Assembly (NCBI GenBank): GCA_013391385.1 | Contig: JACBFI010000022.1 | Location: 1 to 55,118 of the forward strand | DNA: 55,118 nucleotides | DNA from: Sediminibacterium sp. Gen4 | GTDB taxonomy: Bacteria; Bacteroidota; Bacteroidia; Chitinophagales; Chitinophagaceae | Reading direction: 5' to 3' | Shown here: in pieces, positions 2,186-54,908 of the stretch | Numbering within the stretch: position 1 is the stretch's first letter | Layout: the number at the start of each line of letters is the position of its first letter | Notes under the pieces: generated by a model | Databases searched by the model: none | Told to the model about the DNA's origin: nothing | What the model saw: only the letters and a program-made list of their open reading frames with translations | Made by a program: the position numbers and the translations under genes

Positions 2186-2191
2186 AGTAGG

Positions 2192-2280
2192 ACCACAGAG
2201 GTGCACGGAGTTGAACCCAGAGTTTCACAGAGGGCTTATCAGTGAAACGCTGCGCCGTACTCTGTGCAACTCTGTGGTTT
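2192..2280. repeat. palindromic REP-like intergenic element
   Basis: Imperfect inverted repeat starting six bases after the M13 peptidase stop. The left arm begins ACCACAGAGGTGCAC and the right arm ends GTGCAACTCTGTGGT, with CAGAG/CTCTG units between them. It could fold into a long hairpin and may end peptidase transcription, but there is no T-run. The 2186-2602 gap also holds a heptamer array and the rpoB promoter; I see no gene in it. Confidence 0.6.
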
Positions 2281-2337
2281 AAAAACGAATTATAATACAA
2301 GTATTATATTGATTATCAGTCCCTTAATTTAAAACTC

Positions 2338-2372
2338 CTTTCACTTTTCACCTTTCACCTCTCACTTTCTGT
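2338..2372. repeat. 7-nt-period array (CTTTCAC units)
   Basis: Four in-register heptamers (CTTTCAC, TTTTCAC, CTTTCAC, CTCTCAC) plus a degenerate fifth. This is the reverse complement of the AAAAGTG/GAAAGTG family seen at 14219, 20449 and 33768. It lies upstream of the rpoB promoter. Confidence 0.6.
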
Positions 2373-2432
2373 CTCTTTGACAGAGAACCGAAAATCTTTT
2401 TCCCCAAACAGGGTTTTGGTCTAAAATTTGTT

Positions 2433-2463
2433 TTTGCGATTGCCTTCCCATTTCCTACCTTTG
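2433..2463 (+). promoter_or_regulatory. probable rpoB promoter (Bacteroidota type)
   Basis: TTTG at 2433-2436, a 19-bp spacer, then TACCTTTG at 2456-2463. This is an exact match to the Bacteroidota -33/-7 consensus TTTG...TAnnTTTG. Transcription would start near 2470 and give rpoB a 5' leader of about 130 nt. Confidence 0.6.
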
Positions 2464-2602
2464 CCATCCTTATTTTTGGGCCAATTAGCGGGTGGACATT
2501 TTTATCATTGACGTTTGAATGATGAATGAGCCGATTGTACGTTAAGAGAATCTCACCATTCTCCCCAAATTTTTATCGTATCAAAACCGGTTTTACACAA
2601 AT

Positions 2603-6406
<3,804 letters not shown>

Positions 6407-6407
6407 T

Positions 6408-6442
6408 AAGCTGCAAGCTGCAGGCTTCAAGCTACAAGCATG
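6408..6442. repeat. 7-nt-period array (AAGCTGC units) after rpoB stop
   Basis: Heptamers AAGCTGC, AAGCTGC, AGGCTTC, AAGCTAC and AAGCATG in one register, beginning one base after the rpoB stop. Same family as 11602-11636 and, inverted, 11709-11757. Confidence 0.65.
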
Positions 6443-6498
6443 AAGTCTGCAGATTGCTTCTAATTTTTTAGCATAATAATTTAAAAACAAAGCTTGCA

Positions 6499-6512
6499 TC
6501 CGCCGCGGCGGA
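6499..6512. repeat. GC-rich perfect palindrome between rpoB and rpoC
   Basis: TCCGCCGCGGCGGA is a perfect 14-bp palindrome inside an otherwise AT-rich 128-bp spacer, 23 bases upstream of the rpoC start. It has no T-run, so it is unlikely to be an intrinsic terminator. It may affect rpoC translation or RNA processing. Confidence 0.5.
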
Positions 6513-6534
6513 CTGCAGCTCGAAGCTTAAAAAT

Positions 6535-9500
6535 ATGGCCATAAAAAGAGACAATCGCCCAAGATCAACATTCTCCGAGATCACCATCAGTCTGGCATCT
6601 CCGGACAGTATCCTCGAAAGAAGTTTTGGCGAAGTACTGAAGCCTGAAACCATTAACTATCGTACCTACAAACCAGAACGTGATGGCTTGTTCTGTGAAA
6701 GAATTTTTGGTCCGGTTAAAGATTATGAATGTGCCTGCGGTAAGTATAAGCGTATCCGTTATAAGGGTATCGTATGTGACCGTTGTGGTGTTGAAGTAAC
6801 TGAAAAGAAAGTTCGTCGCGAACGTATGGGACACATCAAATTGGTGGTTCCTGTTGTACATATCTGGTATTTCAAAAGCTTACCGAATAAGATTGGTTAC
6901 TTATTGGGTATGAGCTCTAAGAAATTAGAGACCATCATTTACTACGAGCGTTTTGTAGTGATTCAAGGTGGTGTGAAAGAGAACCTGAACATGGGTGATC
7001 TGTTGACTGAAGAAGAATACTTAGATATTCTTGACAACTTACCAAAAGATAATCAGTACCTGCCTGATGATGATCCACAAAAGTTCATCGCTAAAATGGG
7101 TGCTGAAGCTGTTCATGCATTATTGGAAAGAATCGATCTGGATGGATTGAGTTTCTCTCTGCGTAATGCAGCAGCTACTGAAACCTCTCAGCAGCGTAAA
7201 GCAGATGCCTTAAAGCGTCTGAGCGTTGTGGAATCATTCCGTGATGCAAGCACAAGAATCACTAACCGTCCTGAGTGGATGGTAATGCAATATATTCCTG
7301 TTATTCCACCGGAACTGCGTCCGTTAGTGCCTTTGGATGGTGGTCGTTTTGCGAGTTCAGATTTGAATGATCTGTATCGTCGAGTGATCATCCGTAACAA
7401 CCGTTTGAAGCGTTTGTTAGAGATCAAAGCACCGGAAGTGATCCTGCGTAACGAAAAACGTATGTTGCAGGAAGCGATCGATTCACTGTTTGATAATAGC
7501 CGTAAATCCAATGCGGTGAAAGCAGAAGGTGGTCGCGCACTGAAATCATTATCTGATGTACTGAAAGGTAAACAAGGTCGTTTCCGTCAGAACTTATTGG
7601 GTAAGCGTGTGGACTACTCTGGTCGTTCGGTGATCGTGGTTGGACCTGAACTCAAAATGCATGAGTGTGGTTTACCAAAAGATATGGCTGCTGAATTGTT
7701 CAAGCCATTTGTGATTCGTAAGTTGATTGAAAGAGGTATCGTGAAAACAGTGAAGTCTGCTAAGAAATTAGTAGATCGTAAAGAAGCTGTGATCTGGGAT
7801 ATCCTTGAAAATATTCTGAAAGGACACCCTGTATTGTTAAACCGTGCCCCAACATTGCACCGTTTGTCTATCCAGGCCTTCCAGCCAAAATTAGTTGAAG
7901 GTAAAGCGATCCAACTGCACCCACTCGTAACATCAGCGTTCAACGCGGATTTCGATGGTGACCAGATGGCGGTACACGTTCCATTGAGCAATGCTGCTGT
8001 TTTGGAAGCGCAGTTACTGATGCTTTCTTCACACAATATCCTGAACCCTCAAAATGGTACGCCTATTACCCTTCCTTCTCAGGACATGGTACTCGGTCTG
8101 TACTACATCACAAAGGGTAAGAGAACCACTGAAACTGAAGTGGTGAAAGGTGAGGGTAAAGCCTTCTATAGCATGGATGAAGTGATCATCGCTTATAATG
8201 AGCAGCGTGTTGATCTTCATGCAAACATCAAGGTGAAAGTAAACGTACGTGAAGGTGGTAAACTGGTGAAGAAACTCATCGATACGACTGTAGGACGCGT
8301 TTTATTCAACCAACATGTACCTGCTGAAGTAGGTTATATCAATGCATTGTTGACCAAGAAAAGTCTGAGAGAGATCATTGGTGATATCATCAAGATCACT
8401 GACGTTCCTAAAACAGCTAAGTTCCTCGATGATATCAAGACCCTCGGTTTCCGTATGGCCTTCCGTGGTGGTCTGTCATTCAACGTGAATGATCTGATCG
8501 TTCCTGATATGAGAAATGAACTGCTGGAGAATGCAAAAGTAGAAGTTGAAGAAGTGTGGGAGAACTATAACATGGGTCTCATCACCAATAATGAAAGATA
8601 TAACCAGGTTATTGATATCTGGAGCCGTGTGGATACACGTATCACCGAAACATTGATCCGTGAAATGCAAAATGATAAGCAGGGCTTTAACTCTGTTTAC
8701 ATGATGCTGGATTCCGGAGCCCGTGGTAGTAAAACACAGGTTAAGCAGCTGGTAGGTATTCGTGGTCTGATGGCAAAACCACGTAAAAGTGGTAGTACCG
8801 GTAGTGAGGTAATTGAAAATCCGATCCTGTCTAACTTTAAGAGTGGTCTGAACGTATTGGATTATTTCATTTCTACGCACGGTGCGCGTAAAGGTCTTGC
8901 GGATACGGCCCTGAAAACAGCGGATGCCGGTTACTTGACTCGTCGTCTGGTTGACGTATCACAAGATGTGGTGATCAGTGAAGAAGATTGTGGTACACTT
9001 CGTGGTATTGCAACAACTGCACTGAAAGACAATGAAGATGTGATTGAGCCACTGGCAGATAGAATTGAGGGACGTACTTCATTACACAATGTATACCATC
9101 CTGTAACAGATGAGTTGATCATTACTGCAGGTGAAGAGATCTCTTCTGATGACGCGAAAGCGATCGAAGAAGCAGGTATCGAAACCGTTGAGATCCGTTC
9201 TGTATTGACTTGTGAAAGCAAGCGTGGTGTGTGTGTGAAGTGTTATGGTAAGAACCTTGCAACAGGTTATCTCGCACAAAGAGGAGATGCTGTAGGTATC
9301 ATCGCTGCACAGTCAATCGGTGAGCCGGGTACTCAGTTAACACTCCGTACTTTCCACGTGGGTGGTGTTGCGGGCTCTGCTTCTGTAGAATCAACCTTGC
9401 AAGCGAAATTTGATGGAACCATTCAGTTCGATGGTCTGCGTACCGTAGAAACATTGAACAATGAAGGCAATAAAGTGAAGATCGTTATCGGTCGTACAGG

Positions 9501-10818
9501 TGAAGTGAGAATCATGGATGTTAAGAATGATCGTTTAATGATTACGAATAACGTTCCTTATGGTTCTACATTGAATGTGAAAGACGGACAGCAAGTGAAG
9601 AAAGGCGATGTAATCTGTACATGGGATCCATTCAATAACGTAATCGTTGCAGAACAGAATGGTAAGATCCGTTTTGAAAATGTAATTGATGGTATCACTT
9701 ATCGTGATGAAGCTGATGAACAAACAGGTCACCGCGAGAAAGTGGTTATTGAAACCAAGGATAAGACCAAGATCCCTACCATTATTGTTGATGGAAAAGA
9801 AATCAAGCAATACAACTTGCCTGTAGGTTCACACATTTCTGTAGAAGAAGGTGATGAAGTGAAAGCAGGACAGGTAATGGTGAAAATCCCTCGTGTACTT
9901 GGTAAGTTAAGAGATATCACCGGAGGTCTTCCTCGTGTAACTGAATTGTTTGAAGCTCGTAATCCGGGTAACCCTGCGATCGTTTGTGAGATTGATGGTG
10001 TGGTAGCATTTGGTAACGTGAAGCGTGGTAACCGTGAGATCATCGTTGAGTCTAAAGACGGTATGGTGAAGAAATACCTGGTGCCATTGACACGTCAGAT
10101 CCTGGTTCAGGATGGTGACTTCGTGAAAGCAGGTACACCAATGTCTGACGGACAAATTGCTCCAGCGGATATCCTGGCGATTAAAGGTCCATTTGCAGTA
10201 CAAGAGTACGTAGTGAATGAGATTCAGGAAGTATATCGTTTACAAGGTGTAAAAATCAACGATAAGCACATTGAAGTAATCGTTCGTCAGATGATGAAGA
10301 AAGTGGAGATTGTTGATGCGGGTGATACTAAATTCTTGGAGGAGGATCTGGAAGATCGCTTTGACTTTATCGAAGAGAACGACAGAATCTATGATAAGAA
10401 AGTAGTAACCGATGCAGGTGAAAGCACTAAGCTGAAAGCCGGACAAATCATCACTTTGCGTGAGTTGAGAGAAGAAAACTCTATCCTCCGTAGAGCGGAT
10501 AAGAAACTGGTAGAAGTGCGTGATGCAAAACCTGCTACTGCAACACCGGTACTGTTGGGTATCACGAAAGCGTCTCTGGGTGTACAAAGCTGGATCTCAG
10601 CTGCATCATTCCAGGAAACGACTAAAGTACTGAGTCAGGCGGCCATTCAAGGTAAGACCGACGCTATGTTGGGTCTGAAAGAGAATGTAATCACCGGACA
10701 CCTGATTCCTGCTGGTTCTGGACAGAAAGAGTTTGAGAACCTGATCGTAGGAAGTAAGGAAGAGTATGAAGTGCTGGCTACTACCCGCGAAGCGATGAGC
10801 TTTGATGATGAGGAATAA
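6535..10818 (+). CDS. rpoC: DNA-directed RNA polymerase subunit beta-prime
   Basis: Beta-prime subunit of RNA polymerase, carrying the catalytic magnesium site. It is 1427 residues long, typical for the phylum. The first zinc finger is complete (Cys66, Cys68, Cys81, Cys84). The catalytic NADFDGDQM motif sits at residues 470-478, and the second cysteine cluster ([15 protein letters not shown]) lies about 890 residues in. The trigger-loop region ([19 protein letters not shown]) follows. It forms an operon with rpoB and ends at a strong hairpin terminator. Confidence 0.99.
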
Positions 10819-10845
10819 GATCATATGATCTTTTGAATACATGTT

Positions 10846-10877
10846 AAAGTAGGAAGTGAAAACTTCCTACTTTTTTT
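10846..10877 (+). terminator. intrinsic terminator of rpoBC
   Basis: Perfect 12-bp stem AAAGTAGGAAGT / ACTTCCTACTTT with a GAAA tetraloop, running into seven Ts. It lies 27 bases past the rpoC stop. Confidence 0.9.
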
Positions 10878-10997
10878 CAGGTATACATCGAGTTCTTTAT
10901 ACACTGTTTTTGTAATCTGATATTTATTGTTAATCTTGTTGCCCCGAAAACATAATGGGAACAAAAGCCTTTAATTTTATTATCTAAACATTAGTAC

Positions 10998-11594
10998 ATG
11001 AAAAATTTTACCATCGGGTTGAATGTAGTGTTGGCGATAGCGGTAGCTGTTTTATTTTACCTACAATTTTCTTCAGGATCAAAAGATGGGAAAGTAAGTG
11101 CTGCTGGAACGAAAGAAGTTCCTCAGGGAGATTTTAAGATCGCTTACTTTGAGATCGATTCCATTGAAGCACATTTTGATTACTATAAAGAAGTAAGTAA
11201 TTCCATTCAGTCAAAAGCGCAGGAAAATAGCAAACAGTTGAATCAACTGAAACAAACTTTTGCTGATAAATACCAGGAACTTCAGCGCACCGCTCAAACC
11301 ATGACACAGGCTGAGCTGAATAGCAAGCAGCAGGAGCTGATGCAAATGGAAAAGACATACAACAGCAAAGAGCAAATGATGAATAATGAAATGCAGGATG
11401 AGAGCATGAAAAAAATGCTGGATGTAAGACAAAAAATCAGTGACTACTTGAAAGAATACAATGTATCCAAAGGATATGCATTCATCGTAGGAAATAATGA
11501 TGCCTCTATTGCTTTCTATTACAAAGATGCAGCTTATGATATTACTGCTGATGTGATTAAGGGGTTGAATGAGAGGTATAAGAAAAAGAACTAG
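10998..11594 (+). CDS. OmpH/Skp family periplasmic chaperone
   Basis: Skp/OmpH-type protein that holds unfolded outer-membrane proteins in the periplasm. It has 198 residues. The N-terminus has a hydrophobic segment (about residues 5-24) serving as signal or anchor. A long charged, Gln/Lys-rich helical stretch (about 60-150) forms the coiled-coil arms typical of the family, and the C-terminus returns to the body (YAFIVGNND...). It is monocistronic, with its own terminator downstream. The low-complexity coiled coil makes the family call less certain than an enzyme call would be. Confidence 0.8.
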   Translation: MKNFTIGLNVVLAIAVAVLFYLQFSSGSKDGKVSAAGTKEVPQGDFKIAYFEIDSIEAHFDYYKEVSNSIQSKAQENSKQLNQLKQTFADKYQELQRTAQTMTQAELNSKQQELMQMEKTYNSKEQMMNNEMQDESMKKMLDVRQKISDYLKEYNVSKGYAFIVGNNDASIAFYYKDAAYDITADVIKGLNERYKKKN

Positions 11595-11601
11595 TCTTTT
11601 A

Positions 11602-11636
11602 AAGCTACAAGCTGCAAGCGGCAAGCTTCAAGTGAG
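11602..11636. repeat. 7-nt-period array (AAGCTAC units)
   Basis: AAGCTAC, AAGCTGC, AAGCGGC, AAGCTTC and AAGTGAG in register, eight bases after the ompH-like stop. An inverted counterpart lies at 11709-11757, on the other side of the terminator. Confidence 0.65.
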
Positions 11637-11652
11637 TAATATTTTCAATAAG

Positions 11653-11684
11653 GCAGGTGAATTTTATGTTCACCTGCTTTTTTT
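11653..11684 (+). terminator. intrinsic terminator of the OmpH-like gene
   Basis: Perfect 9-bp stem GCAGGTGAA / TTCACCTGC with a 7-nt loop, followed by seven Ts. Confidence 0.9.
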
Positions 11685-11708
11685 GTTAACAGGGATACCT
11701 GTAACGAT

Positions 11709-11757
11709 CTTGTAGCTTGTAACTTGAAGCTTGCGGCTTGCCCCTTGCCGCTTTTTT
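11709..11757. repeat. 7-nt-period array (CTTGTAG units), inverted copy
   Basis: Seven in-register units: CTTGTAG, CTTGTAA, CTTGAAG, CTTGCGG, CTTGCCC, CTTGCCG, CTTTTTT. They are the reverse complement of the AAGCTAC family at 11602, so the two arrays bracket the terminator. Confidence 0.65.
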
Positions 11758-11787
11758 CCCTATCTTCCCTCACGAACAAAACGCTAT

Positions 11788-13209
11788 ATGAATAATAACA
11801 ACCCTTCTTTCAAACCCACCCTTGGATTGTTGGATGCTACGATGATTGTAGCCGGTAGTATGATCGGTTCCGGAATTTTTATTGTGAGTGCTGATATTAC
11901 ACGTAATGTAGGCAGTGCCGGTTGGCTCATTGCTGTTTGGTTGATTACGGGATTTATGACTTTGACTGCAGCACTGAGTTATGGAGAACTGAGTGCAATG
12001 TTTCCTAAAGCCGGTGGTCAATATGTATACCTCAAAGAATCTTATAATAAACTCACCGGATTTCTTTACGGATGGAGTTTCTTCTCGGTTATTCAAACCG
12101 GAACAATCGCCGCGGTAGGAGTGGCATTCAGTAAGTTTGCAGGTTATTTCTTTCCCTCATTGGAAATGACGGATGAGAATATGCTTGCACAAATCGGTTT
12201 TGTAAAATTATATCCCGCTCAGTTTGTATCTATCGCGATCATTATTTTTCTGACCTATATCAATACCAAAGGTGTGCAAGGTGGTAAATTGATTCAGACT
12301 ACATTCACTGTAACAAAGTTGTTATCGCTTTTTGGATTGATTGTGTTTGGTTTTTTACTGGCAGCCAAATCAGAAGTTTGGAATGCGAATTGGACAGATG
12401 CTTGGTCAATGAAAAATATTTCAGGGGATAATAGTGTCACTGCAATATTAGGTGTGGCTGCATTTGGAGCTATTGCTGCGTCGATGGTAGGTTCTATTTT
12501 TAGTAGTGATGCATGGAACAATGTTACATTCATCGCAGGTGAAATTAAAAATCCACAGCGTAATATTGGCCTGAGTCTTTTTCTGGGAACACTCATCGTT
12601 ACGGTGATCTACGTGGCTGCCAATCTGATGTACTTGAGTGTACTTCCGTTGAATGATATTGCACATGCACCACAAGATCGAGTGGCAGTATCCGCGTCCA
12701 ACCTCATTTTTGGAAATATCGGTACTTATGTGATCGCCGTTATGATCATGATCTCCACTTTTGGATGTAACAATGGATTGATACTTGCGGGTGCAAGGGT
12801 ATATTATACGATGGCTCAGGATGGATTGTTTTTCAAAAAAGCAGGTGAACTGAATAAGAATGCAGTACCTGAGTGGGCACTATGGGCACAGTGTGTGGTA
12901 GCTTCTTTATTATGTTTGAGCGGTAAATATGGAGATCTGTTAGATATGGTTTCTTTTATCGTGGTGATCTTCTATGTACTGACTATTGCAGGTATCTTCA
13001 TTCTTCGTAAAAAGAGACCTGAGATTGATCGTCCATATAAAGCATTTGGCTATCCCATTTTACCTGCTATTTATATGTTGATGGGCATTACTTTCTGCGT
13101 TTTGCTGATCGTCTATAAGCCTAATTTTACATGGCCGGGACTCATCATCACACTAATTGGAATTCCTTTGTATTATCTTGCAGTACGAAATAAGAAACAA
13201 GAAGCCTGA
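11788..13209 (+). CDS. APC family amino acid permease
   Basis: Inner-membrane amino acid transporter of the APC superfamily, 473 residues, about twelve hydrophobic helices. TM1 carries the family's glycine-rich substrate loop (AGSMIGSGIF). The open frame extends back to a TTG at 11731, but that extension lies in the repeat array. The ATG at 11788, giving MNNNNPSFKPTLGLLDA, is the credible start. Its stop overlaps the start of the next gene by one base (TGATG), so the two are co-transcribed. Substrate cannot be read from sequence. Confidence 0.88.
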   Translation: MNNNNPSFKPTLGLLDATMIVAGSMIGSGIFIVSADITRNVGSAGWLIAVWLITGFMTLTAALSYGELSAMFPKAGGQYVYLKESYNKLTGFLYGWSFFSVIQTGTIAAVGVAFSKFAGYFFPSLEMTDENMLAQIGFVKLYPAQFVSIAIIIFLTYINTKGVQGGKLIQTTFTVTKLLSLFGLIVFGFLLAAKSEVWNANWTDAWSMKNISGDNSVTAILGVAAFGAIAASMVGSIFSSDAWNNVTFIAGEIKNPQRNIGLSLFLGTLIVTVIYVAANLMYLSVLPLNDIAHAPQDRVAVSASNLIFGNIGTYVIAVMIMISTFGCNNGLILAGARVYYTMAQDGLFFKKAGELNKNAVPEWALWAQCVVASLLCLSGKYGDLLDMVSFIVVIFYVLTIAGIFILRKKRPEIDRPYKAFGYPILPAIYMLMGITFCVLLIVYKPNFTWPGLIITLIGIPLYYLAVRNKKQEA

Positions 13210-47259: not shown

Positions 47260-47763
47260 ATGGAACCTGAGAAAAAATGGTACGCTTTATACACCAAGCC
47301 CAGATGGGAGAAAAAAATAGATAGTTTATTGGTGCGTAAGGGAATTGAGAGTTGGTGTCCTTTGCAGAAAGTAGAACGCCAATGGAGCGACCGCAAAAAA
47401 ATCATCGAAGATCCGCTGTTTAAATCCTACGTCTTTGTACATATTGACGACTCTGAACGCACCAAAGTGTTAATGACAGATGGGGTATTGAATTTCGTCT
47501 ATTATCTCGGCAAACCTGCAGTGATCAAAGATGAAGAAGTGATGACCATCAAAAAATACCTCGCCGAAAAAGATGCGAGTCTGGCTATTCTAAGTGAAGA
47601 GGGTTATCAAGCTGAAATGAAGATCATGGTCAATCATGGTGTATTCATGGGGAATGAAGGAACTGTGATCAGAGGGGGGAAGAAAAAAGTCTATGTGAAA
47701 CTCGAAAGTTTGGGGCAGGTGATGGTGGTGGAGTTTCCGACGGAGTATTTATCGCCGATGTGA
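47260..47763 (+). CDS. UpxY-type NusG-like transcription antiterminator
   Basis: A 167-residue NusG paralogue. The N-terminal NGN domain (about 6-105) opens KKWYALYTKPRWEKKIDSLL and contains FVHIDD; a short KOW-like domain (about 118-165, MGNEGTVIRGGKKKVYVKLESLG) ends it. In Bacteroidota such specialised paralogues control long polysaccharide operons, and they are usually first in them. Here no polysaccharide gene follows; instead the accessory island begins. Its target is therefore not visible. It could also be a secondary NusG. Confidence 0.85.
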   Translation: MEPEKKWYALYTKPRWEKKIDSLLVRKGIESWCPLQKVERQWSDRKKIIEDPLFKSYVFVHIDDSERTKVLMTDGVLNFVYYLGKPAVIKDEEVMTIKKYLAEKDASLAILSEEGYQAEMKIMVNHGVFMGNEGTVIRGGKKKVYVKLESLGQVMVVEFPTEYLSPM

Positions 47764-47896: not shown

Positions 47897-47930
47897 AACT
47901 TTTGGAAAGTTTCGGAACTTTCCAAAAGTT
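47897..47930. repeat. 15-bp perfect hairpin with TCGG loop
   Basis: AACTTTTGGAAAGTT (47897-47911) and AACTTTCCAAAAGTT (47916-47930) are exact complements around TCGG. It has no T-run. It lies at the left edge of the accessory island, next to the presumed outer core of the left attC-like site. The rest of the 47764-47896 stretch shows nothing recognisable. Confidence 0.7.
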
Positions 47931-48090
47931 AACTCTCAGTTTTATAGTTTCGTTGCCCAAAATCTGTTTATTAATTCTCGAATATGATTCAGATTAGAAC
48001 TATCAAGAGATATTATTCCAATTGTTGGAAGTTAGCACTTCACTGTTATAGAAGCACGAAACCCCAGCTTTTGCAAAACGGCTGTTAGGT
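47927..48090 (-). repeat. attC-like site of the 256-residue-protein cassette
   Basis: Read on the minus strand, it opens with the R''-type core ACCTAAC (48090-48084), right after the stop of the gene at 48098. Over 13 bases this core is complementary to that cassette's own start at 48878-48890 (12 of 13). Next, 29 bases inward, comes a 24-base block (48031-48054) that matches 20 of 24 bases of the block in the other site at 48956-48979, at the same 29-base distance. The far core (AGTTAAC near 47927) is degenerate and its position is approximate. Confidence 0.6.
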
Positions 48091-48097
48091 GTAGTAT

Positions 48098-48868
48098 TCA
48101 TATCATAATAGCTCTTTTGTTATCCTTATTACTTTCATTCCATTCTTTGTGACACATAAGTAAATTCTCATTGTCATTTAATTCAAGCCATCTTACCATT
48201 CCTTTTTTATCCTTTTTTGAAATGTCATCTTTGTTTTGAATTGTCATAAATTCGATTCTTTGCTTAAAATCTGATTTTAGCCATAAATCTAATGATGGCA
48301 TTGTTATTTTACCTAACGGTCTTCGAGTATTTTTTTCTTTAAGTTCAAAATGTGCTTCACCATGTTCCTTTCGTCCTCCATCTTCCGAACCTCCGCCATG
48401 CACCCAAATTTCAAAAGACAATAGATCTGACAATTTATTCATTCTCTTAAAATTCTCATGAACAGTGTATTTCTTGCCGTCTTCACCTTCAATGGTAAAC
48501 CTACCTTCGATACTAAATCCTCTGAGTCCTATATTTTCAAATTGAACTAGTAGTTCAGGATTGTCAAAGGTGTATTCAATCATCCAAGTTCCATTAGGTA
48601 AGTCTTGAAATTCAATTGGTAATGATTGCCTATCGTCATTGTTAATCAAAAAGGAATCCGTTAGTCTAACACCTTCTTCTATTTTTTCTGTATGCTGGAT
48701 GTTAATGTTGTTCTCTTTGTTATCCGAATGGAATTTATTCCTATAAAATTCTATCGCATGTGCAGAAATAACTAAATCATAAAAACCTATTTCATCATGA
48801 TACCTGAGCATTTTTTTGTCAGGGATCATTACAGGTCCTAAAATTCTATTTTTAATGTCGTTACTCAC
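48098..48868 (-). CDS. XkdF-like (Peptidase_S78_2) domain protein with His/Gly-rich C-terminal domain
   Basis: A 256-residue protein starting at GTG. Residues about 8-135 resemble XkdF, the putative phage prohead serine protease: GPVMIPDKKMLR, then GFYDLVISAHAIEFYRNKF, INIQHTE (candidate catalytic His59) and IGLRGFSIEGRF (candidate Ser119). The C-terminal part (about 150-256) is distinct, with EIWVHGGGSEDGG, HGEAHFELK and a KITMPSLDLW strand that recalls DUF4160-like proteins. No other phage gene is nearby. It is the only gene of cassette 2. Whether it is an active protease, and of what, is unknown. Confidence 0.65.
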   Translation of the reverse strand: MSNDIKNRILGPVMIPDKKMLRYHDEIGFYDLVISAHAIEFYRNKFHSDNKENNINIQHTEKIEEGVRLTDSFLINNDDRQSLPIEFQDLPNGTWMIEYTFDNPELLVQFENIGLRGFSIEGRFTIEGEDGKKYTVHENFKRMNKLSDLLSFEIWVHGGGSEDGGRKEHGEAHFELKEKNTRRPLGKITMPSLDLWLKSDFKQRIEFMTIQNKDDISKKDKKGMVRWLELNDNENLLMCHKEWNESNKDNKRAIMI

Positions 48869-48883
48869 GTCTGTTTATATTAC

Positions 48884-49015
48884 ACCTAACGTTTTGCAGC
48901 TTGGCGTAGTGGCGGATTTTTAGCACTAATGTTCAATCGAAGAACTGCACTTTGGGTTAGCACTAAACTGTCATAGTAGCTTGTCACCCGCTATTACGCC
49001 AAACTGCTGTTGTGC
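48884..49015 (-). repeat. attC-like site of the helicase cassette, 132 bp
   Basis: On the minus strand it runs from core GCACAAC (49015-49009) to core GTTAGGT (48890-48884), which fits GTTRRRY. Inside, 48896-48915 pairs with 48988-49007 over 20 bp (17 Watson-Crick, 2 wobble, 1 mismatch), leaving a loop of about 72 nt. The R'' core and its flank (49009-49021) are complementary to the start of the same cassette at 52723-52735 in 12 of 13 bases. Length is within the range of known attC sites. R'' overlaps the stop region of the helicase gene. Confidence 0.7.
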
Positions 49016-49019
49016 GTAG

Positions 49020-52000
49020 TTATTCTTTGTTTATCAGTCGTTTATGTTCTTTTTTTAACTCAGTCGGTTTAGTAATATATACTTTGTCGAACAGTTTTAT
49101 TTTCTCTTCAAATGTCATATTCACATAGTCTTGATTTGAGCACCACCACTTATAAAAATCAACAGGTTGTGTAGAATACGGAACCGATGCTTGAACAGGT
49201 CTGTCGTAACCTTTGAATTCTATTCTTGTTTTTAAACCTAATGCGTCTTTGAAGTAGTCAGGATAGTATGCTTTTAATTTTGAAATGAGAAGGTCAAATA
49301 CTTCTTTGTTTACTTTTAATGGCGTTTCCCTTCTAACAATGTCAAAAGAAATCGGGTCTTCTCTTAGCCACTCTGATACTCTTAATGTCCTAATGCCATT
49401 GTCGTTTGTGATTGTCAGTAAGTCTTTTAGAAAATAATATCTCTCAGCATTAGGATGGAAGATGTTCACGTTTGAATCTTCGTCCTTTTCTGTTGAAATT
49501 TCAGCTGCTTTCAGATCTTTTTTTTTAAGAGTTTCGATGATGTCAACGTTATTAGCTTCACCACCTTTGTATTTGTCAAGTAGAATATCAACGTCTGAAC
49601 CGAGGAAAAAATCTTCGATAAAATCCCACCTTTCATTATTAGTGAAGCTCCTTAAAAAGAAATGATCAAAAATTTGATTGCTCAAATAATGTCTTTCAAG
49701 TGTCTTTGATAAAAGGCTGTTCGTATAGTAGGAGTTATTAGAATCTCTTTCAATCCTATTAGGATCGTTAATACGGATAAATACCATTGGATTCTCACCA
49801 CCCTTAATTTCAAATGTTCCTAGTTCAAGCATCTCTAAGAAATAGCCAAGTCTAACATAGTTTATAGCATTGGTTTCTTTGTTAGTTACATATCTCTCTA
49901 CTATTGAATTGTCAGTGTTGCCAAATAAATTATTGAGCCTAGTCATTAACGCAGTAAAATTCGCTAGGTATTGTGTATTGTAAACACGGTATTCGTAGCC
50001 ATCAATACTCTTTCTTTGCTGCAAAAAGGCATTGCCTTCAATAACTCCTGGCTGTATAAGTCTTCCTGAATAAGATGACAGAATAAATCTTGAAAGCTTC
50101 TCTGCCTTCTCACTATCATTAAGAAAATTATTTAACTTTTGTTGAAATTCATCTTGTTTGAAAAAACCATCTGAATTAGCAAAGATGGTTTGAACTGCAT
50201 TCAACAAGTTTTGTAACTTGTTAAATATGTTGTTGAAACTATCAAGTCTTTCAAAAGACATTTTTAATTGAGGTATTAATTCAATGTGGTCGTCTTTAAA
50301 CAAGTTGCCAGTATAAAACTCTCGTTTTAGTATTGGAAAACTTTTATTTACGAAATGTTCATACCATAGCTTGTCAAGATCAATTTCTATAATGTTATTT
50401 CCATTACCTGATTTATCAATAACTCTAAATGTGTTTGAGTATTTGTGTGTTAGGGTATTTAAGTCTTGGCCTGAAATTCTTGCAAAAACTTTTACAAAGA
50501 GTTTTTTGGGTCTTGCTATGATTACATTGAATCTATGTTTAGCTAAATAATCCTTTTCGATCATCATTAACGCTGTCAGAACCTTTTGATCTAGATCCAT
50601 TGCATTTTCGAAAATATGCCCAAAGTCATCTACAGATAAAAGTAGGTTTCTATTCTTGTTGTTTTTCAGATATGTTTTATGTATTTTTTTTAGCACTTCT
50701 TTAATTTGATATTGTCTAAGTGCTGACATTCCGTGGAGTGCTTTGGTATATCGTTGATCTTGTGAAGAGTAATTTAATGTAGCAAAACCTTTTATTTCTG
50801 GTTTCCTTGCAACCCTTCCTATTTCCTGAACATAGTCTGGTAATAAACCTGATGGAGCGTGGTGATATACAACTTGAATGTCTGATATATCCACTCCCAT
50901 TCCAAAGGCTTTTGTTGAAATCATTATTTTTCTTTCACCACTCTTGAATTGTCTGTATGCAAACTCTTTGTTTAATGAATCTAATGATCCATAATAACCC
51001 GTTGCTATTTGCTGCTGGTCAGCATTAACTTGATCCAAGATTTGTCTGATATGACGAGTGTAAGGAGTATATACTAAAGTCTTTAATCCAAGTTCGTTTA
51101 TCTTTTTAATAAAGTCTACCGTCTGACTTGTTTTGCTTGCTTCATATTTAATTGTGAACCGCTCATAGTTGTTAACGATAAATTCAATGTCGTTACGCTT
51201 TACTTGACCAATAAATATATGAGGGTTGTGCATTACTAAACTGTCAATGCTATCAAAGACCATATCGTTTGCACCACCGTAAATTGCAGTCGCAGTTACT
51301 GCAACCATAGGGAATTTTAGATTGTGAAATTTTCGCATTTTTCTGATATGATTTCCAAGAAACCAATAATCTACTCTAAAGTCACGACCCCAAGTTGTGA
51401 TTAAGTGTGCTTCATCAATTACTAACAATCCAAGTCTTCTAAAGCCGATAAAATGAGTTATATCGTAAGAAAGCAACAATTCAGGAGACATATACAGAAT
51501 GTCAATTTCCCCACTTTTACAACTTTCAATGATCCTTTCACGATCTATTAAACTTAACTCACTATTGATGTATGCCACCTTGTCAAAATTTCGATCCTTG
51601 TCTATTGCATTAACTTGGTCTTTCATTAATGCAATCAATGGAGAAACCACAATTGTTACATCTCCTTTTTCTGAAACATAGAACGCAGGGAGCTGAAACA
51701 GTAGGGATTTACCTGCTCCTGTAGGAGCAGTTAAAAACAAATCCCTACACGGTTCATCTCCTTTTGAATTTTCATATTCATTTATAATTGTTTCAACAAT
51801 AAGTCCTTGAGATAATTCAGCAATTTCATTACCTATGTTAGGGTTCTTATAAACCGAAATATTTCTAAAAGAAGCATCTTCACCCCAAAATTTAGTCAGT
51901 AATTTTTGTGTCTGATCATTTACTTTATAATCTGAGGAAATAGATGATTCTTCTAAAATGAAAAGAGTTCCACCAAAACTGTCAAGTAATGAATTGAGTT

Positions 52001-52688
52001 TCTTTAATGTTTCAAGTATTGTTGGATTAAGCGGCTGTTTTGAATAAAACTTAACAACAGCTTTTTTTGAAAATATATTTTGTTCGATGCAGTTATTGAG
52101 AAAACTATCCAACGAATACGGATCAGAACTAACATCAATGCTTTCTAAAGTCTGATCACTTGAAAAGGTTAGTTCCTTTGAATTAGTGAAAATGTCAATA
52201 GATTCAAATGAATTAATTGGCGTTTTAATTGAGTAATAATATTTATCATTAATAGCTATTTGTTCTGCTTGATAAATTGGTAATCTTTCAGGTCGCAACT
52301 CAATATTTTCCTTTTCTTCCTTTTCCAAATATTGGCTCTTATCAATTGGAAAGAGTTGTCGTAGGTTGTCTTTTAGAATAACAACTCTATCTGTAAAGAA
52401 GGAAGGGTCAATATAGTTTATTAAGTAGCTAAATTGTGCAAATGATAATAAATGAAATTCCTTTGTCTGTTGAAGTGTTGTGAAAATTTTTGCAAACCAA
52501 TCTTTATTGAATGTCAACTCGTCATTTTCCAAGTAAAATGTTTCAGGGTCTGCAAGAAAGTTGTTTAAAGTGTCTGAATTAATCAAATTTACCTGTCCTT
52601 GAACAACAAAAATTTGATTTGTCTTTTTAGATTTCAGTCTGTCAGCATTTTTGAGAATTAGGTCTGTGTAGAGTTCTTTAAACGTCAT
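49020..52688 (-). CDS. RecQ-like superfamily II helicase with long extra N- and C-terminal regions
   Basis: A 1222-residue ATP-dependent helicase. The core (about 300-660) has Walker A TAPTGAGKS (Lys327), DEAH box VIDEAHLI (Asp425-His428), TAT motif VAVTATA, and motif VI QEIGRVAR (621-628), with RecQ-like FKSGERKIMISTKAFGMGVD before it. Residues 1-300 and 660-1222 match no family I recognise and lack an obvious RecQ zinc/HRDC arrangement. It is the only gene of cassette 1, is AT-rich, and ends overlapping the attC-like core. Context and architecture suggest a defence role, but this is inference; repair is an alternative. Confidence 0.8.
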   Translation of the reverse strand: MTFKELYTDLILKNADRLKSKKTNQIFVVQGQVNLINSDTLNNFLADPETFYLENDELTFNKDWFAKIFTTLQQTKEFHLLSFAQFSYLINYIDPSFFTDRVVILKDNLRQLFPIDKSQYLEKEEKENIELRPERLPIYQAEQIAINDKYYYSIKTPINSFESIDIFTNSKELTFSSDQTLESIDVSSDPYSLDSFLNNCIEQNIFSKKAVVKFYSKQPLNPTILETLKKLNSLLDSFGGTLFILEESSISSDYKVNDQTQKLLTKFWGEDASFRNISVYKNPNIGNEIAELSQGLIVETIINEYENSKGDEPCRDLFLTAPTGAGKSLLFQLPAFYVSEKGDVTIVVSPLIALMKDQVNAIDKDRNFDKVAYINSELSLIDRERIIESCKSGEIDILYMSPELLLSYDITHFIGFRRLGLLVIDEAHLITTWGRDFRVDYWFLGNHIRKMRKFHNLKFPMVAVTATAIYGGANDMVFDSIDSLVMHNPHIFIGQVKRNDIEFIVNNYERFTIKYEASKTSQTVDFIKKINELGLKTLVYTPYTRHIRQILDQVNADQQQIATGYYGSLDSLNKEFAYRQFKSGERKIMISTKAFGMGVDISDIQVVYHHAPSGLLPDYVQEIGRVARKPEIKGFATLNYSSQDQRYTKALHGMSALRQYQIKEVLKKIHKTYLKNNKNRNLLLSVDDFGHIFENAMDLDQKVLTALMMIEKDYLAKHRFNVIIARPKKLFVKVFARISGQDLNTLTHKYSNTFRVIDKSGNGNNIIEIDLDKLWYEHFVNKSFPILKREFYTGNLFKDDHIELIPQLKMSFERLDSFNNIFNKLQNLLNAVQTIFANSDGFFKQDEFQQKLNNFLNDSEKAEKLSRFILSSYSGRLIQPGVIEGNAFLQQRKSIDGYEYRVYNTQYLANFTALMTRLNNLFGNTDNSIVERYVTNKETNAINYVRLGYFLEMLELGTFEIKGGENPMVFIRINDPNRIERDSNNSYYTNSLLSKTLERHYLSNQIFDHFFLRSFTNNERWDFIEDFFLGSDVDILLDKYKGGEANNVDIIETLKKKDLKAAEISTEKDEDSNVNIFHPNAERYYFLKDLLTITNDNGIRTLRVSEWLREDPISFDIVRRETPLKVNKEVFDLLISKLKAYYPDYFKDALGLKTRIEFKGYDRPVQASVPYSTQPVDFYKWWCSNQDYVNMTFEEKIKLFDKVYITKPTELKKEHKRLINKE

Positions 52689-52727
52689 ATTTTATTTTTC
52701 TTAGGTAGTGTCTGTCTTTTGTAATTA

Positions 52728-52775
52728 CGCACAACTTATAAATTTACGAAACTCTCCAATTATAGCGTTAGTGCG
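52728..52775. repeat. short inverted repeat at the cassette-1 boundary (possible degenerate att site)
   Basis: CGCACAAC (52728-52735) faces GTTAGTGCG (52767-52775), complementary apart from one inserted base, with 31 nt between. The left copy is the leading core of the helicase cassette. It may be a trimmed attC of a lost neighbour or an attI-like end. The remaining 52776-53055 shows no recognisable gene. Confidence 0.45.
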
Positions 52776-53055: not shown

Positions 53056-54327
53056 TTAAACACACCAATCCACTATTTGATTCGCCCATTCTTTTCTATA
53101 TGGAGTGGAGATGCGAATATAATTATCAGTATACCCCTCCATCATCCCATTCTTCTCAAAAGCCTCAAATAAAACCTTACGGGTTTGTCCGTGATGTTGT
53201 TCGGTGAAGTATTGCATTTTCATATAAGAAAGATTGCGCAGTGTTTTATTGCGTTCATTTCTTACCGGAATGGGGATTACGGGTTTTATTTCCAATGCCT
53301 TGGTATGATCTCTTTCTGAGTAGGTGAATACATGCAAATAGGAAACATCCAGTGAATGTAAAAAATCAAAAGTTTCCTGAAAATGGGTATCGGTTTCACC
53401 CGGGAAACCAACGATCACATCCACGCCAATCGCACAATGTGGCATCAGCTTTTTGATCAGTGCCACACGTTCAGCATAGAGTTCGCGCTTATATCTTCTG
53501 CGCATTAATCCTAGAATTTCATTACTGCCACTTTGTAAAGGGATATGAAAATGGGGCATGAACTTATCACTGTTGGCTACAAAAGCGATGATATCATTGG
53601 TCAGTAAATTCGGTTCAATAGAGGATATGCGATAGCGTTCAATGCCTTGCACTTTGTCCAATGCCTGTATCAGCGAATAAAAGTCTTCTTCATGTCTGCC
53701 ACCATCTGCGCCTTTACCGAAATCACCAAGGTTTACACCGGTTAATACAATTTCTTTCACGCCATTACCTGCCAATAGTTCCGCTTGCTTAACAACGTTT
53801 TCAATACTATCACTTCTGCTCTTACCTCTGGCCATGGGAATGGTACAAAAAGAACAGTTATAATCACAACCGTCTTGTACTTTCAAAAAAGTACGTGTTC
53901 GGTCGTTTTGTGAAAATGAAGCATTGAATCCACTGACTTCTTCAATATCACAGCTGCAGATACGGGTAGGATCACCTTTGGCCAATTCACTGATGTGCGA
54001 AGCAATATTGAATTTCTCTGCAGCACCCAGTACTAGGTCTACTCCGGGTATCTCAGCAATTTCTTTGGGTTTTAACTGTGCATAACAACCGGTAATCACC
54101 ACAAAACTTTCCGGATTGCGACGCTGTATGCGTCTTACCAATTGGCGACATTCTTTATCCGCGTTATCGGTTACAGAGCAGGTATTGATCACGTACACGT
54201 CTGCCAGATCATCAAACTCTTTTTTCTCAAAACCTTCCTGTTCCAACATACGGGAAAGGGTAGAAGTTTCTGAAAAATTCAGTTTACAACCTAAGGTGTG
54301 AAATGCAACGCTACGCTTCTGACTCAT
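53056..54327 (-). CDS. mtaB: tRNA (N6-threonylcarbamoyladenosine(37)-C2)-methylthiotransferase
   Basis: Radical-SAM methylthiotransferase that converts t6A to ms2t6A at tRNA position 37. It has 423 residues from the ATG at 54327; the frame is open to 54393 but MSQKRSVAFHTLGCKLNFSE is the standard N-terminus. The UPF0004 domain holds CKLN, NTCSVT and TGCYAQ cysteines. The radical-SAM cluster is CDYNCSFC (Cys154, Cys158, Cys161), and a TRAM-like tail ends the protein. The GCKLN signature separates MtaB from MiaB and RimO. Confidence 0.94.
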   Translation of the reverse strand: MSQKRSVAFHTLGCKLNFSETSTLSRMLEQEGFEKKEFDDLADVYVINTCSVTDNADKECRQLVRRIQRRNPESFVVITGCYAQLKPKEIAEIPGVDLVLGAAEKFNIASHISELAKGDPTRICSCDIEEVSGFNASFSQNDRTRTFLKVQDGCDYNCSFCTIPMARGKSRSDSIENVVKQAELLAGNGVKEIVLTGVNLGDFGKGADGGRHEEDFYSLIQALDKVQGIERYRISSIEPNLLTNDIIAFVANSDKFMPHFHIPLQSGSNEILGLMRRRYKRELYAERVALIKKLMPHCAIGVDVIVGFPGETDTHFQETFDFLHSLDVSYLHVFTYSERDHTKALEIKPVIPIPVRNERNKTLRNLSYMKMQYFTEQHHGQTRKVLFEAFEKNGMMEGYTDNYIRISTPYRKEWANQIVDWCV

Positions 54328-54389
54328 GGGCCGCAAAGGTAGGAAGGAAAGATGATTCTGCATAGCCTGAAAGCACCCGTTTGCCCCAC

Positions 54390-54908
54390 TCAAAAAAGCC
54401 TGACTACAAGTCCGGAACTCCAGAAACCCCAGTCACCTTCCATCAATTCATGGTTCTGAAAAACATGATCGAAGCTGATTCTCAGGTGTATTTTTTCCTT
54501 TTTAGAAAAAGCCAATAAGGCAGACTGTCTAAACCCATGATGACTCTCGCCATCCAACGAATAATGCCCCCAATGCGATGCCATGCTCAATGGGAAAATA
54601 ATGGGATATTGCAATCCCAGATACCTATGGGTAATTCCATATTTAGGATTAAGCGGTTTCCCATTGATCACAACCATTTCTTTGGTACCGCCGAATAGGG
54701 CTTTACCTACTTCTGCATCCAAAAGTAGTTTTGGGGCAAGCCTGTAACTGAATTTACCCCCGATCCCCAGTCCAAAAGCATTTTGGCTCTTACTAATATC
54801 ATATTGGGTTTGATGGAGTGACCCCACTATTGAGAATACTGTTTTCTTTTGTGCCTGAAGGGGCATACTGCTGATAAAAAACAAACAAAATGATAATAGT
54901 CGGGTCAT
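54390..54908 (-). CDS. predicted exported/outer-membrane protein of unknown function
   Basis: A 172-residue protein with a signal peptide (cleavage after LQAQ near residue 20). The mature part has alternating strands (FGLGIGGKFSYRLAPKLLLDAEVG) and ends SSGLVVRLF, an outer-membrane-type C-terminus. It lies upstream of mtaB on the same strand with a 62-bp gap. No named family recognised. The 54909-55118 edge shows no gene. Confidence 0.6.
   Translation of the reverse strand: MTRLLSFCLFFISSMPLQAQKKTVFSIVGSLHQTQYDISKSQNAFGLGIGGKFSYRLAPKLLLDAEVGKALFGGTKEMVVINGKPLNPKYGITHRYLGLQYPIIFPLSMASHWGHYSLDGESHHGFRQSALLAFSKKEKIHLRISFDHVFQNHELMEGDWGFWSSGLVVRLF

What the first reader, a model, noticed from the sequence alone, without database searches (positions are those of the whole stretch)
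47927..52775. Integron-like cassette pair without an integrase in a Bacteroidota chromosome
Two single-gene units on the minus strand obey the integron cassette rule. Unit 1 begins at core GTTGTGC (52735) and its trailing site opens with the complement (49009-49015); the complement extends to 12 of 13 bases. Unit 2 begins at GTTAGGT (48890) and its trailing site opens with ACCTAAC (48084-48090), again 12 of 13. The two units have different cores, yet each matches its own start, which is what circular cassettes with their own attC predict. The site between them is a 132-bp imperfect stem-loop. Both trailing sites share a 24-base block (20 of 24 identical) at the same 29-base distance from the core. 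Integrons are rarely described in this phylum.
Basis: partly seen in the sequence, partly recalled or inferred. Interest (0 to 1): 0.85.

Follow-up and report, generated by a model that had tools for sequence, protein, structure and literature searches.

The report
Integron cassettes with an unusual integrase
Two genes here sit in mobile "cassettes" of an integron-like gene-capture system that looks common in one large bacterial group and seems to use a recombinase lacking the part thought essential in ordinary integrons; this is inferred from sequence alone.

Summary
In detail: each minus-strand unit starts with a core complementary to its own end (12 of 13, twice), with a hairpin site between them. 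The pair is a remote fragment of a larger system. Related sites stand in same-strand arrays (10 in Flavobacterium enshiense) and cassettes match their own ends (30 of 38 units; 9 of 9). The stem covaries. Sites match in 272 of 395 genomes drawn from the class, in 0 of 28 control genomes outside it. Upstream of arrays, on the same strand, lies a tyrosine recombinase whose nearest solved fold is integron integrase IntI4 but which lacks the IntI additional domain: 200 of 395 genomes, against 1 of 395 with canonical IntI. The window's genome has one, with an attI-like junction and a cassette, on another contig. The window pair interrupts two genes that lie close together in 28 of 29 relatives; its second site is truncated. 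No recombination was tested. Ten searches of one open library listed no description of it.

The parts
53056..54393 (-). flanking gene: MtaB-like tRNA methylthiotransferase (name by my reading, not searched); close to the NusG-like gene in relatives
   Evidence: ORF; (58 of 61 same-genus genomes)
52729..52735 (-). start core of cassette 1, GTTGTGC, in non-site sequence (insertion point outside an integron)
   Evidence: no site match upstream
49020..52688 (-). cassette 1 gene, 1222 aa DEAD/DEAH helicase of a defence-associated type (PADLOC C3a193 573.9 bits; DpdF-like)
48884..49015 (-). site 1, complete attC-like site: own left core 49009-49015, 20-bp stem, loop with the conserved block, right core GTTAGGT belonging to cassette 2
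   Evidence: CM R1 48879-49020, 128.7 bits; fold; covariation of the family
48884..48890 (-). start core of cassette 2, GTTAGGT
48098..48868 (-). cassette 2 gene, 256 aa, weak match to Peptidase_S78_2/XkdF (30.7 bits, cut-off 24); no PADLOC match
48025..48095 (-). site 2, left half only (truncated)
   Evidence: nhmmer 1-60 of 125; R1 35.3 bits over 47953-48095 with much of the stem unpaired
47897..47930 (.). perfect 15-nt inverted repeat, 4-nt loop, beyond the broken end (terminator-like)
47260..47763 (+). flanking gene: 167 aa NusG-like (name by my reading, not searched), convergent with the MtaB-like gene

Best explanation
The window holds two gene cassettes of a Bacteroidota integron-like system, inserted at a chromosomal position away from the integron (a CALIN-like, out-of-integron insertion) and now partly decayed. 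Inferred working: a cassette is a circle made of one or two genes plus one hairpin site. A dedicated tyrosine recombinase, encoded upstream of the array on the same strand, joins the circle at G|TT to an attI-like point after its own gene, or to another site, so cassettes stack head to tail. In the circle the cassette's own start and end cores pair (about 10 bases), followed by a 20-bp stem; in the array each site carries the next cassette's start. Shown by sequence: cassette rule, covarying stem, arrays, integrase position and strand, attI-like junction, locus without the cassettes in relatives. Inferred: that this recombinase is the enzyme, that it works on the folded single strand, and that insertion in the window was by the same enzyme.
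For: Cassette rule: 30 of 38 adjacent units match own ends at >=4 of 5 variable bases; 2000 shuffles mean 4.4, maximum 13; within-site control 12 of 66; 9 of 9 in F. enshiense, 2000 shuffles at most 7. Stem: covariation score 0.593 against 0.146 shuffled and 0.04-0.10 slid. Integrase-only retrieval of 80 named loci: 60 site hits in 24 loci, 56 of 60 downstream on the same strand, expected share 0.23. Co-occurrence in the class: both 182, integrase only 18, sites only 90, neither 105, Fisher 4e-23. First-cassette start found by the rule in 26 of 30 loci that I picked (>=7 bases; 23 with >=9), 21 of the 26 within 300 nt of the integrase stop. Top 3 Foldseek hits are chains of 2A3V, IntI4. Locus in relatives: both flanking genes in 28 of 29 fetched loci, without the cassette genes or a site.
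Against: No recombination, circle or expression data. Co-occurrence is not one to one: 90 of 272 site-bearing class genomes lack the integrase at this cut-off and 18 of 200 integrase-bearing ones lack a site match, and genomes in a class are related, so the Fisher value overstates independence. R1 was built from these sites and its E-values are rough. Site 2 is truncated and the insertion edges could not be mapped. 8 of 38 units break the rule. Placement of the integrase relative to IntI is unresolved, and by sequence two Xer-type chains score above IntI4. Eight of the 66 sites scored near integrases in unnamed relatives lie upstream or on the other strand, and many of those loci were picked because they had a site.
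Confidence: 0.86

Rival explanations
1. An ordinary integron fragment (CALIN): canonical attC cassettes delivered by a canonical IntI, with nothing unusual about the integrase.
For: The visible architecture is that of integrons: arrays, own-end complementarity, attI-like junction. One genome of the order has a canonical IntI (G107, 421.9 bits).
Against: Canonical IntI in 1 of 395 class genomes and 1 of 150 relatives, the same genome, and G107 has no R1 match at E<=1e-4. Only 2 of 66 sites have GTTRRRY and 2 of 66 RYYYAAC. No Rfam family matched site 1 at E<=1 (whether Rfam holds an attC family was not checked). The array-adjacent enzyme lacks the IntI insertion.
Confidence: 0.1
2. Modules moved by housekeeping Xer recombinases, as with dif-like modules on plasmids (recalled); the array-adjacent recombinase is incidental.
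For: The enzyme is Xer-like, and XerC-like and XerA chains are its best sequence matches in the PDB.
Against: Sites are about 125 bp with a long covarying stem, not a short dif-like core. Arrays track the dedicated gene's position and strand (56 of 60). The genome's own XerC and XerD type genes score far lower against A2 (154 and 158 bits against 523).
Confidence: 0.04
3. The integrase does move cassettes but as double-stranded DNA; the stem is used for something else, such as transcript ends. (This differs from the best explanation only in the strand step.)
For: The enzyme lacks the I2 helix that docks extrahelical bases, and 44 of 55 sites pair best without a one-sided bulge, so the stem could present a double-stranded look.
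Against: The own-end pairing extends the hairpin only in the circle or a folded strand; stem covariation is far above the slid controls. A folded stem that mimics double-stranded DNA would also fit (as described for CTXphi, PMC4792948, passages).
Confidence: 0.25
4. An ordinary two-gene operon with terminator-like repeats.
For: Both genes on one strand, a hairpin or half of one after each.
Against: Neither gene is present at the locus in 29 relatives. Same-type sites flank unrelated genes in arrays. The two different cores match their own starts.
Confidence: 0.01

Closest known systems
Chromosomal (sedentary) integrons such as the Vibrio cholerae superintegron with VCR attC sites (details recalled)
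   Same: Head-to-tail cassettes on one strand, ~125-bp related hairpin sites, core complementarity within each cassette, tyrosine recombinase plus attI-like point at the array head, toxin-like and defence cargo.
   Different: Integrase lacks the IntI additional domain; 12 of 14 aligned here have an extra N-terminal domain of about 75 aa; it is co-directional with the cassettes; core is GTTR plus variable bases; stem has a conserved A.C mismatch instead of clear one-sided extrahelical bases.
CALIN (clusters of attC sites lacking integrases)
   Same: The window locus: cassettes with sites and no integrase nearby.
   Different: One complete and one truncated site only, and non-canonical sites.
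Smyshlyaev et al. 2021 'integron-like subgroup' of tyrosine recombinases (PMC8138268, passages)
   Different: The passages seen do not link such members to cassette arrays in Bacteroidota.
NCBIfam NF040815 'site-specific tyrosine recombinase/integron integrase'
   Same: Nearest NCBI model for the five array integrases tested; the same product name stands on a plasmid copy.
   Different: 4 of the 5 fall under its cut-off of 220 (198-219 bits); one passes (227.8).
IS91-type elements carrying a tyrosine recombinase (association partly recalled)
   Same: A related recombinase next to an IS91 family transposase is annotated in L281.
   Different: Two shorter proteins that I took for this type by length and neighbour (L114, L110) form a branch apart from the array integrases.

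Membership tests
Integron | Tandem single-orientation cassettes each ending in a recombination site | tested here: met
   longest ORF on cassette strand in 34 of 38
Integron | Start core complementary to the cassette's own end core | tested here: met
   30 of 38, 9 of 9; window 2 of 2
Integron | Sites fold as conserved hairpins | tested here: met
   not met by the window's truncated site 2
Integron | Core GTTRRRY / RYYYAAC | tested here: not met
   2 of 66 each; GTTR 57 of 66, YAAC 63 of 66. Window cores GTTAGGT and ACCTAAC do fit; GTTGTGC does not.
Integron | One-sided extrahelical bases in the stem | tested here: inconclusive
   44 of 55 sites pair best with no one-sided bulge, 11 with one on the right arm; 11 of the 66 sites were not usable; predicted pairing only
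Integron | IntI with its additional domain (I2) | tested here: not met
   alignment to IntI4 2A3V skips residues 208-250; no insertion seen in 14 aligned integrases; TIGR02249 171-209 bits in five, cut-off 265
Integron | Integrase gene at the head of the array | tested here: met
   56 of 60 site hits; own genome C13
Integron | attI insertion point beside the integrase | tested here: met
   by position and cassette rule only: 26 of 30 picked loci, 21 of 26 within 300 nt
Integron | Integrase-dependent insertion and excision; promoter Pc; single-strand substrate | not testable with these tools
   needs experiments
CALIN | At least two attC sites without a nearby integrase | tested here: inconclusive
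   one full site and one half site in the window; IntegronFinder itself not run

The most novel reading that the evidence does not exclude
Bacteroidota carry their own widespread class of integron, run by an integrase that never acquired (or has lost) the I2 domain and that recombines hairpin sites without canonical extrahelical bases, with an added N-terminal domain perhaps taking over strand recognition. This would be either the missing intermediate in the origin of integrons or an independent invention, present in about half or more of the genomes of a whole class.
Probability: 0.5. Interest if true: 0.93.

Novelty: new variant of a known kind. Interest (0 to 1): 0.87.

Why it matters
IntegronFinder 2.0 names, within Bacteroidetes proper, one complete integron, in Salinibacter ruber (PMC9024848, passages), whereas here a dedicated integrase is in 200 of 395 and sites in 272 of 395 genomes of one class. 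Current theory explains single-strand recombination by the I2 domain and speaks of a lack of intermediates (PMC7790495, passages). A natural I2-less integrase with an attI-like point and hairpin arrays makes that question directly testable. It also points to a large, little-mapped reservoir of mobile cargo, including phage-defence genes.

Tried and rejected
Rfam scan of the locus: nothing relevant. blastn gave fewer site-bearing genomes (34 of 150) than the covariance model (79 of 150), but 2 of those 34 (G004, G123) are not in the model's list, so the model misses some too. Mapping the exact edges of the insertion against relatives' intergenic DNA failed: homology stops at the gene ends; in 5 of the 18 gaps measured 756-815 bp of other DNA lie between the two flanking genes. 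Tree: array integrases cluster away from Xer and from the two IS-type rows, but the only canonical IntI (one row) is unresolved; two rows (L206, L233) have extreme branches and were probably bad frame picks. Exact-pattern scan of viral contigs: 0. The N-terminal domain looks HARP-like to me by eye and from memory only: in the six proteins tried Pfam gave nothing over cut-off outside the recombinase domains, its profile has no significant match in the PDB by sequence (best E 0.098), and a fold comparison of its model (pLDDT 80.4, strands and helices in the order EEHEEH) could not be started because the machine was busy. VIA-align was not available. In one search, XerC/XerD also ring at the E-value used, so I counted genomes with a hit of at least 200 bits (52 of 150) by reading the table; the lowest counted is 214.8. 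In one search I left out the two weakest of the 70 matches (22.1 and 21.7 bits) and could not score two on L102. For alignment A1 I gave 52 of the 66 sites. Site counts per genome are capped (at most 21 and 8 candidates scored), so they are not used as array sizes.
Full report
WHAT IS IN THE WINDOW. On the minus strand, two units follow each other: a 1222-aa helicase gene (49020-52688) and a 256-aa gene (48098-48868). Unit 1 starts GTTGTGC at 52735 and ends in the complement at 49009-49020; unit 2 starts GTTAGGT at 48890 and ends at 48084-48095. Each matches 12 of 13, with the same pattern: ten matches, one mismatch, then matches. The 132-base site between them folds well as single-stranded DNA (z -2.80, 0 of 200 shuffles as good). 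The site after unit 2 keeps only its left half (35.3 against 128.7 bits; fold z -1.53, 14 of 200 shuffles as good). No site match precedes unit 1.

THE SITE FAMILY. blastn with the 132-base site found matches in 34 of 150 relatives. From 20 fetched stretches and the window, iterative nhmmer gave arrays of same-strand sites (for example 12 in L051, 30-104 bits), of which 66 passed a score and length filter as full-length. A covariance model (R1) from 52 of these matches 79 of 150 relatives (it misses 2 of the 34 blastn genomes), 272 of 395 genomes drawn evenly from the class (249 of 339 good ones; 146 of 196 genera), and 0 of 28 control genomes that hold a related recombinase but whose record titles are not Bacteroidota. 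RNAalifold gives a 16-pair stem with 14 pairs showing compensatory changes. Covariation score 0.593 against 0.146 in shuffles and 0.04-0.10 when the partner is slid.

THE CASSETTE RULE. If sites were mere repeats, the left and right cores of one site should match. If units are circular cassettes, the start of a unit should match its own end, across a gene. The second holds: 30 of 38 neighbouring units (under 4 kb) match at four or five of the five variable core bases, mostly 9-10 bases in a row; 2000 random re-pairings give on average 4.4 and at most 13; the same-site control gives 12 of 66. In Flavobacterium enshiense DK69 (L170), 9 of 9 fit, 2000 re-pairings at most 7. The longest ORF lies on the cassette strand in 34 of 38; the distance between sites has a median of 1030 bp.

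THE INTEGRASE. The family TIGR02249 (integron integrase) passes its cut-off in 1 of 150 relatives and 1 of 395 class genomes, the same genome G107. Another tyrosine recombinase lies by the arrays. One of them aligned to IntI4 (2A3V) covers 9-207 and 251-320 and skips 208-250, the place of the IntI additional domain (the place is recalled); 14 such proteins show no insertion, share the invariant R, K, HxxR, H and Y positions of the family, and end in SP[LF]D. A model of the F. enshiense enzyme (pLDDT 83.8) has as its three nearest PDB folds the chains of 2A3V (E 1e-16), ahead of XerA. By sequence, a XerC-like and a XerA chain score above IntI4, so ancestry is not settled; the tree groups the array integrases (25 rows, 2 changes) but leaves the one IntI unresolved. 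12 of the 14 have an N-terminal domain of about 75 residues, with no Pfam match over cut-off in the six tried and no significant PDB sequence match. With profile A3 at E<=1e-70 the integrase is in 200 of 395 class genomes.

LINK BETWEEN THE TWO. Retrieved by the integrase alone (80 named loci), 24 loci hold 60 site matches; 56 are downstream on the integrase's strand, in 21 loci, where 23% would be expected. The 24 bear Bacteroidota titles (my reading), cultured ones included: F. enshiense, F. aciduliphilum, Algoriphagus ornithinivorans, Algibacter onchidii, Winogradskyella ursingii, Seonamhaeicola aphaedonensis. In the unnamed relatives 58 of 66 scored sites are downstream on the same strand, but many of those loci were chosen with a site in view. 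Genome-level co-occurrence: 182 both, 18 integrase only, 90 sites only, 105 neither; in relatives 44/8/35/63. Searching back from the first site for its matching start finds it in 26 of 30 loci that I picked (23 with at least 9 bases), 21 of the 26 within 300 nt of the integrase stop: the attI-like point. In the window's genus the bases before it are alike (GCGTACTTTTAAGT then GTTAG in L055 and L129, nearly so in L100). In G017, G037 and G064, 6-7 kb upstream of the integrase is alike (87-94%).

THE WINDOW'S OWN GENOME. Nine matches at E<=1 on five contigs: the window's two, four on C24, one each on C35, C8 and C13. On C13 the integrase (385 aa, L100 9422-10579) is followed after 121 nt by GTTAGCCGCTA, a small ORF with a Fic/DOC gene (73.5 bits), and a site whose left core is the complement, 11 bases; that site scores weakly (33 bits, E 8.5e-4). 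So an integron with its integrase is present, and the window pair lies on another contig. The flanking MtaB-like and NusG-like genes are both in 28 of 29 same-genus loci (one cut by a contig end; 5-815 bp apart in the 18 measured), with neither cassette gene nor a site (best E 0.82). The simplest reading is insertion of cassettes outside the integron; such insertions are known for integrons (recalled).

HOW IT DIFFERS FROM TEXTBOOK INTEGRONS. GTTRRRY and RYYYAAC each hold in 2 of 66 sites; GTTR in 57, YAAC in 63. In 55 usable sites the 20-bp stem has a conserved A.C mismatch (position 14 unpaired in 52) and a T.G wobble (36); 44 pair best without a one-sided bulge. In canonical systems the I2 helix docks such one-sided extrahelical bases (PMC7790495, passages). 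Here enzyme and site both seem to lack the matching part. That is what I find most striking, and it is inferred from predicted folds.

CARGO. A Thoeris pair ThsB/ThsA in one cassette, MerT plus HMA, DinB, Fic/DOC, and the window's defence-type helicase (C3a193). Several other cassette proteins tried matched nothing.

NOVELTY. Passages read: integrons are listed for Bacteroidota (PMC8618304; PMC2426708, which selected genes by the additional domain); IntegronFinder 2.0 names one complete integron in Bacteroidetes proper (PMC9024848); the integron-like recombinase subgroup is said not to conserve the insertion fully (PMC8138268); archaeal integrases have the domain (PMC9668308); the taxon-specific attC paper does not mention Bacteroidetes (PMC8352920). 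The listings of searches of this open library showed no account of this system, but some listings were cut (25 of 109, 20 of 192) and I opened eight papers, passages only. Subscription papers and preprints are not held, so it may be in print.

VERDICT. A real cassette pair, of a probably functional but untested integron-like system: a new variant of a known kind.

Noticed in passing
L279 (pHH1107, FJ012881) 6037-8235: A 221-aa gene called tpnF (49% identical to the F. enshiense integrase over 231 aa) lies directly upstream of tet(X3), and a left-half R1 site (31.1 bits, E 4.7e-5) directly downstream, so tet(X3) sits where a first cassette would. The cassette rule is not met (7 of 10 core bases), so this is only a hint. 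Described only.
   Followed up: partly
L056 about 1707-3592 and 9957-11842; L060 two copies; similar DNA in L057, L109, L110: Group II introns (RF01999, RF00029; RVT_1+GIIM maturase) sit at the GTT core of these sites in the junctions looked at, in two same-genus genomes. Introns at attC sites are known for integrons (recalled; PMC7923331 seen in a listing only).
   Followed up: partly
L280, L281, L282: Plasmid copies in Chryseobacterium and Pontibacter carry the integrase with following genes; L280 has 5 same-strand sites at E<1e-6 plus a group II intron RT and an IS110 transposase in the array; no site match in L281 or L282.
   Followed up: partly
L170 and L104, also L100 11326-11501: A second, longer class of site matches (about 174-177 bp) mixed with the shorter class in the same arrays.
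   Followed up: no
L051 9004-11060: Thoeris pair ThsB/ThsA as one cassette of an array.
   Followed up: partly
L131, L137, L149, L157-L167 and others: In draft genomes contigs often end within a few hundred bases downstream of the integrase, as expected if the array breaks assembly.
   Followed up: no
L114 802-2770; L281 11924-13866: A shorter related recombinase is paired with an IS91 family transposase (annotated in L281; in L114 a 389-aa overlapping ORF, not searched); in L114 it follows a site match directly.
   Followed up: no
window 47897-47930: Perfect 15-nt inverted repeat beyond the truncated site.
   Followed up: no
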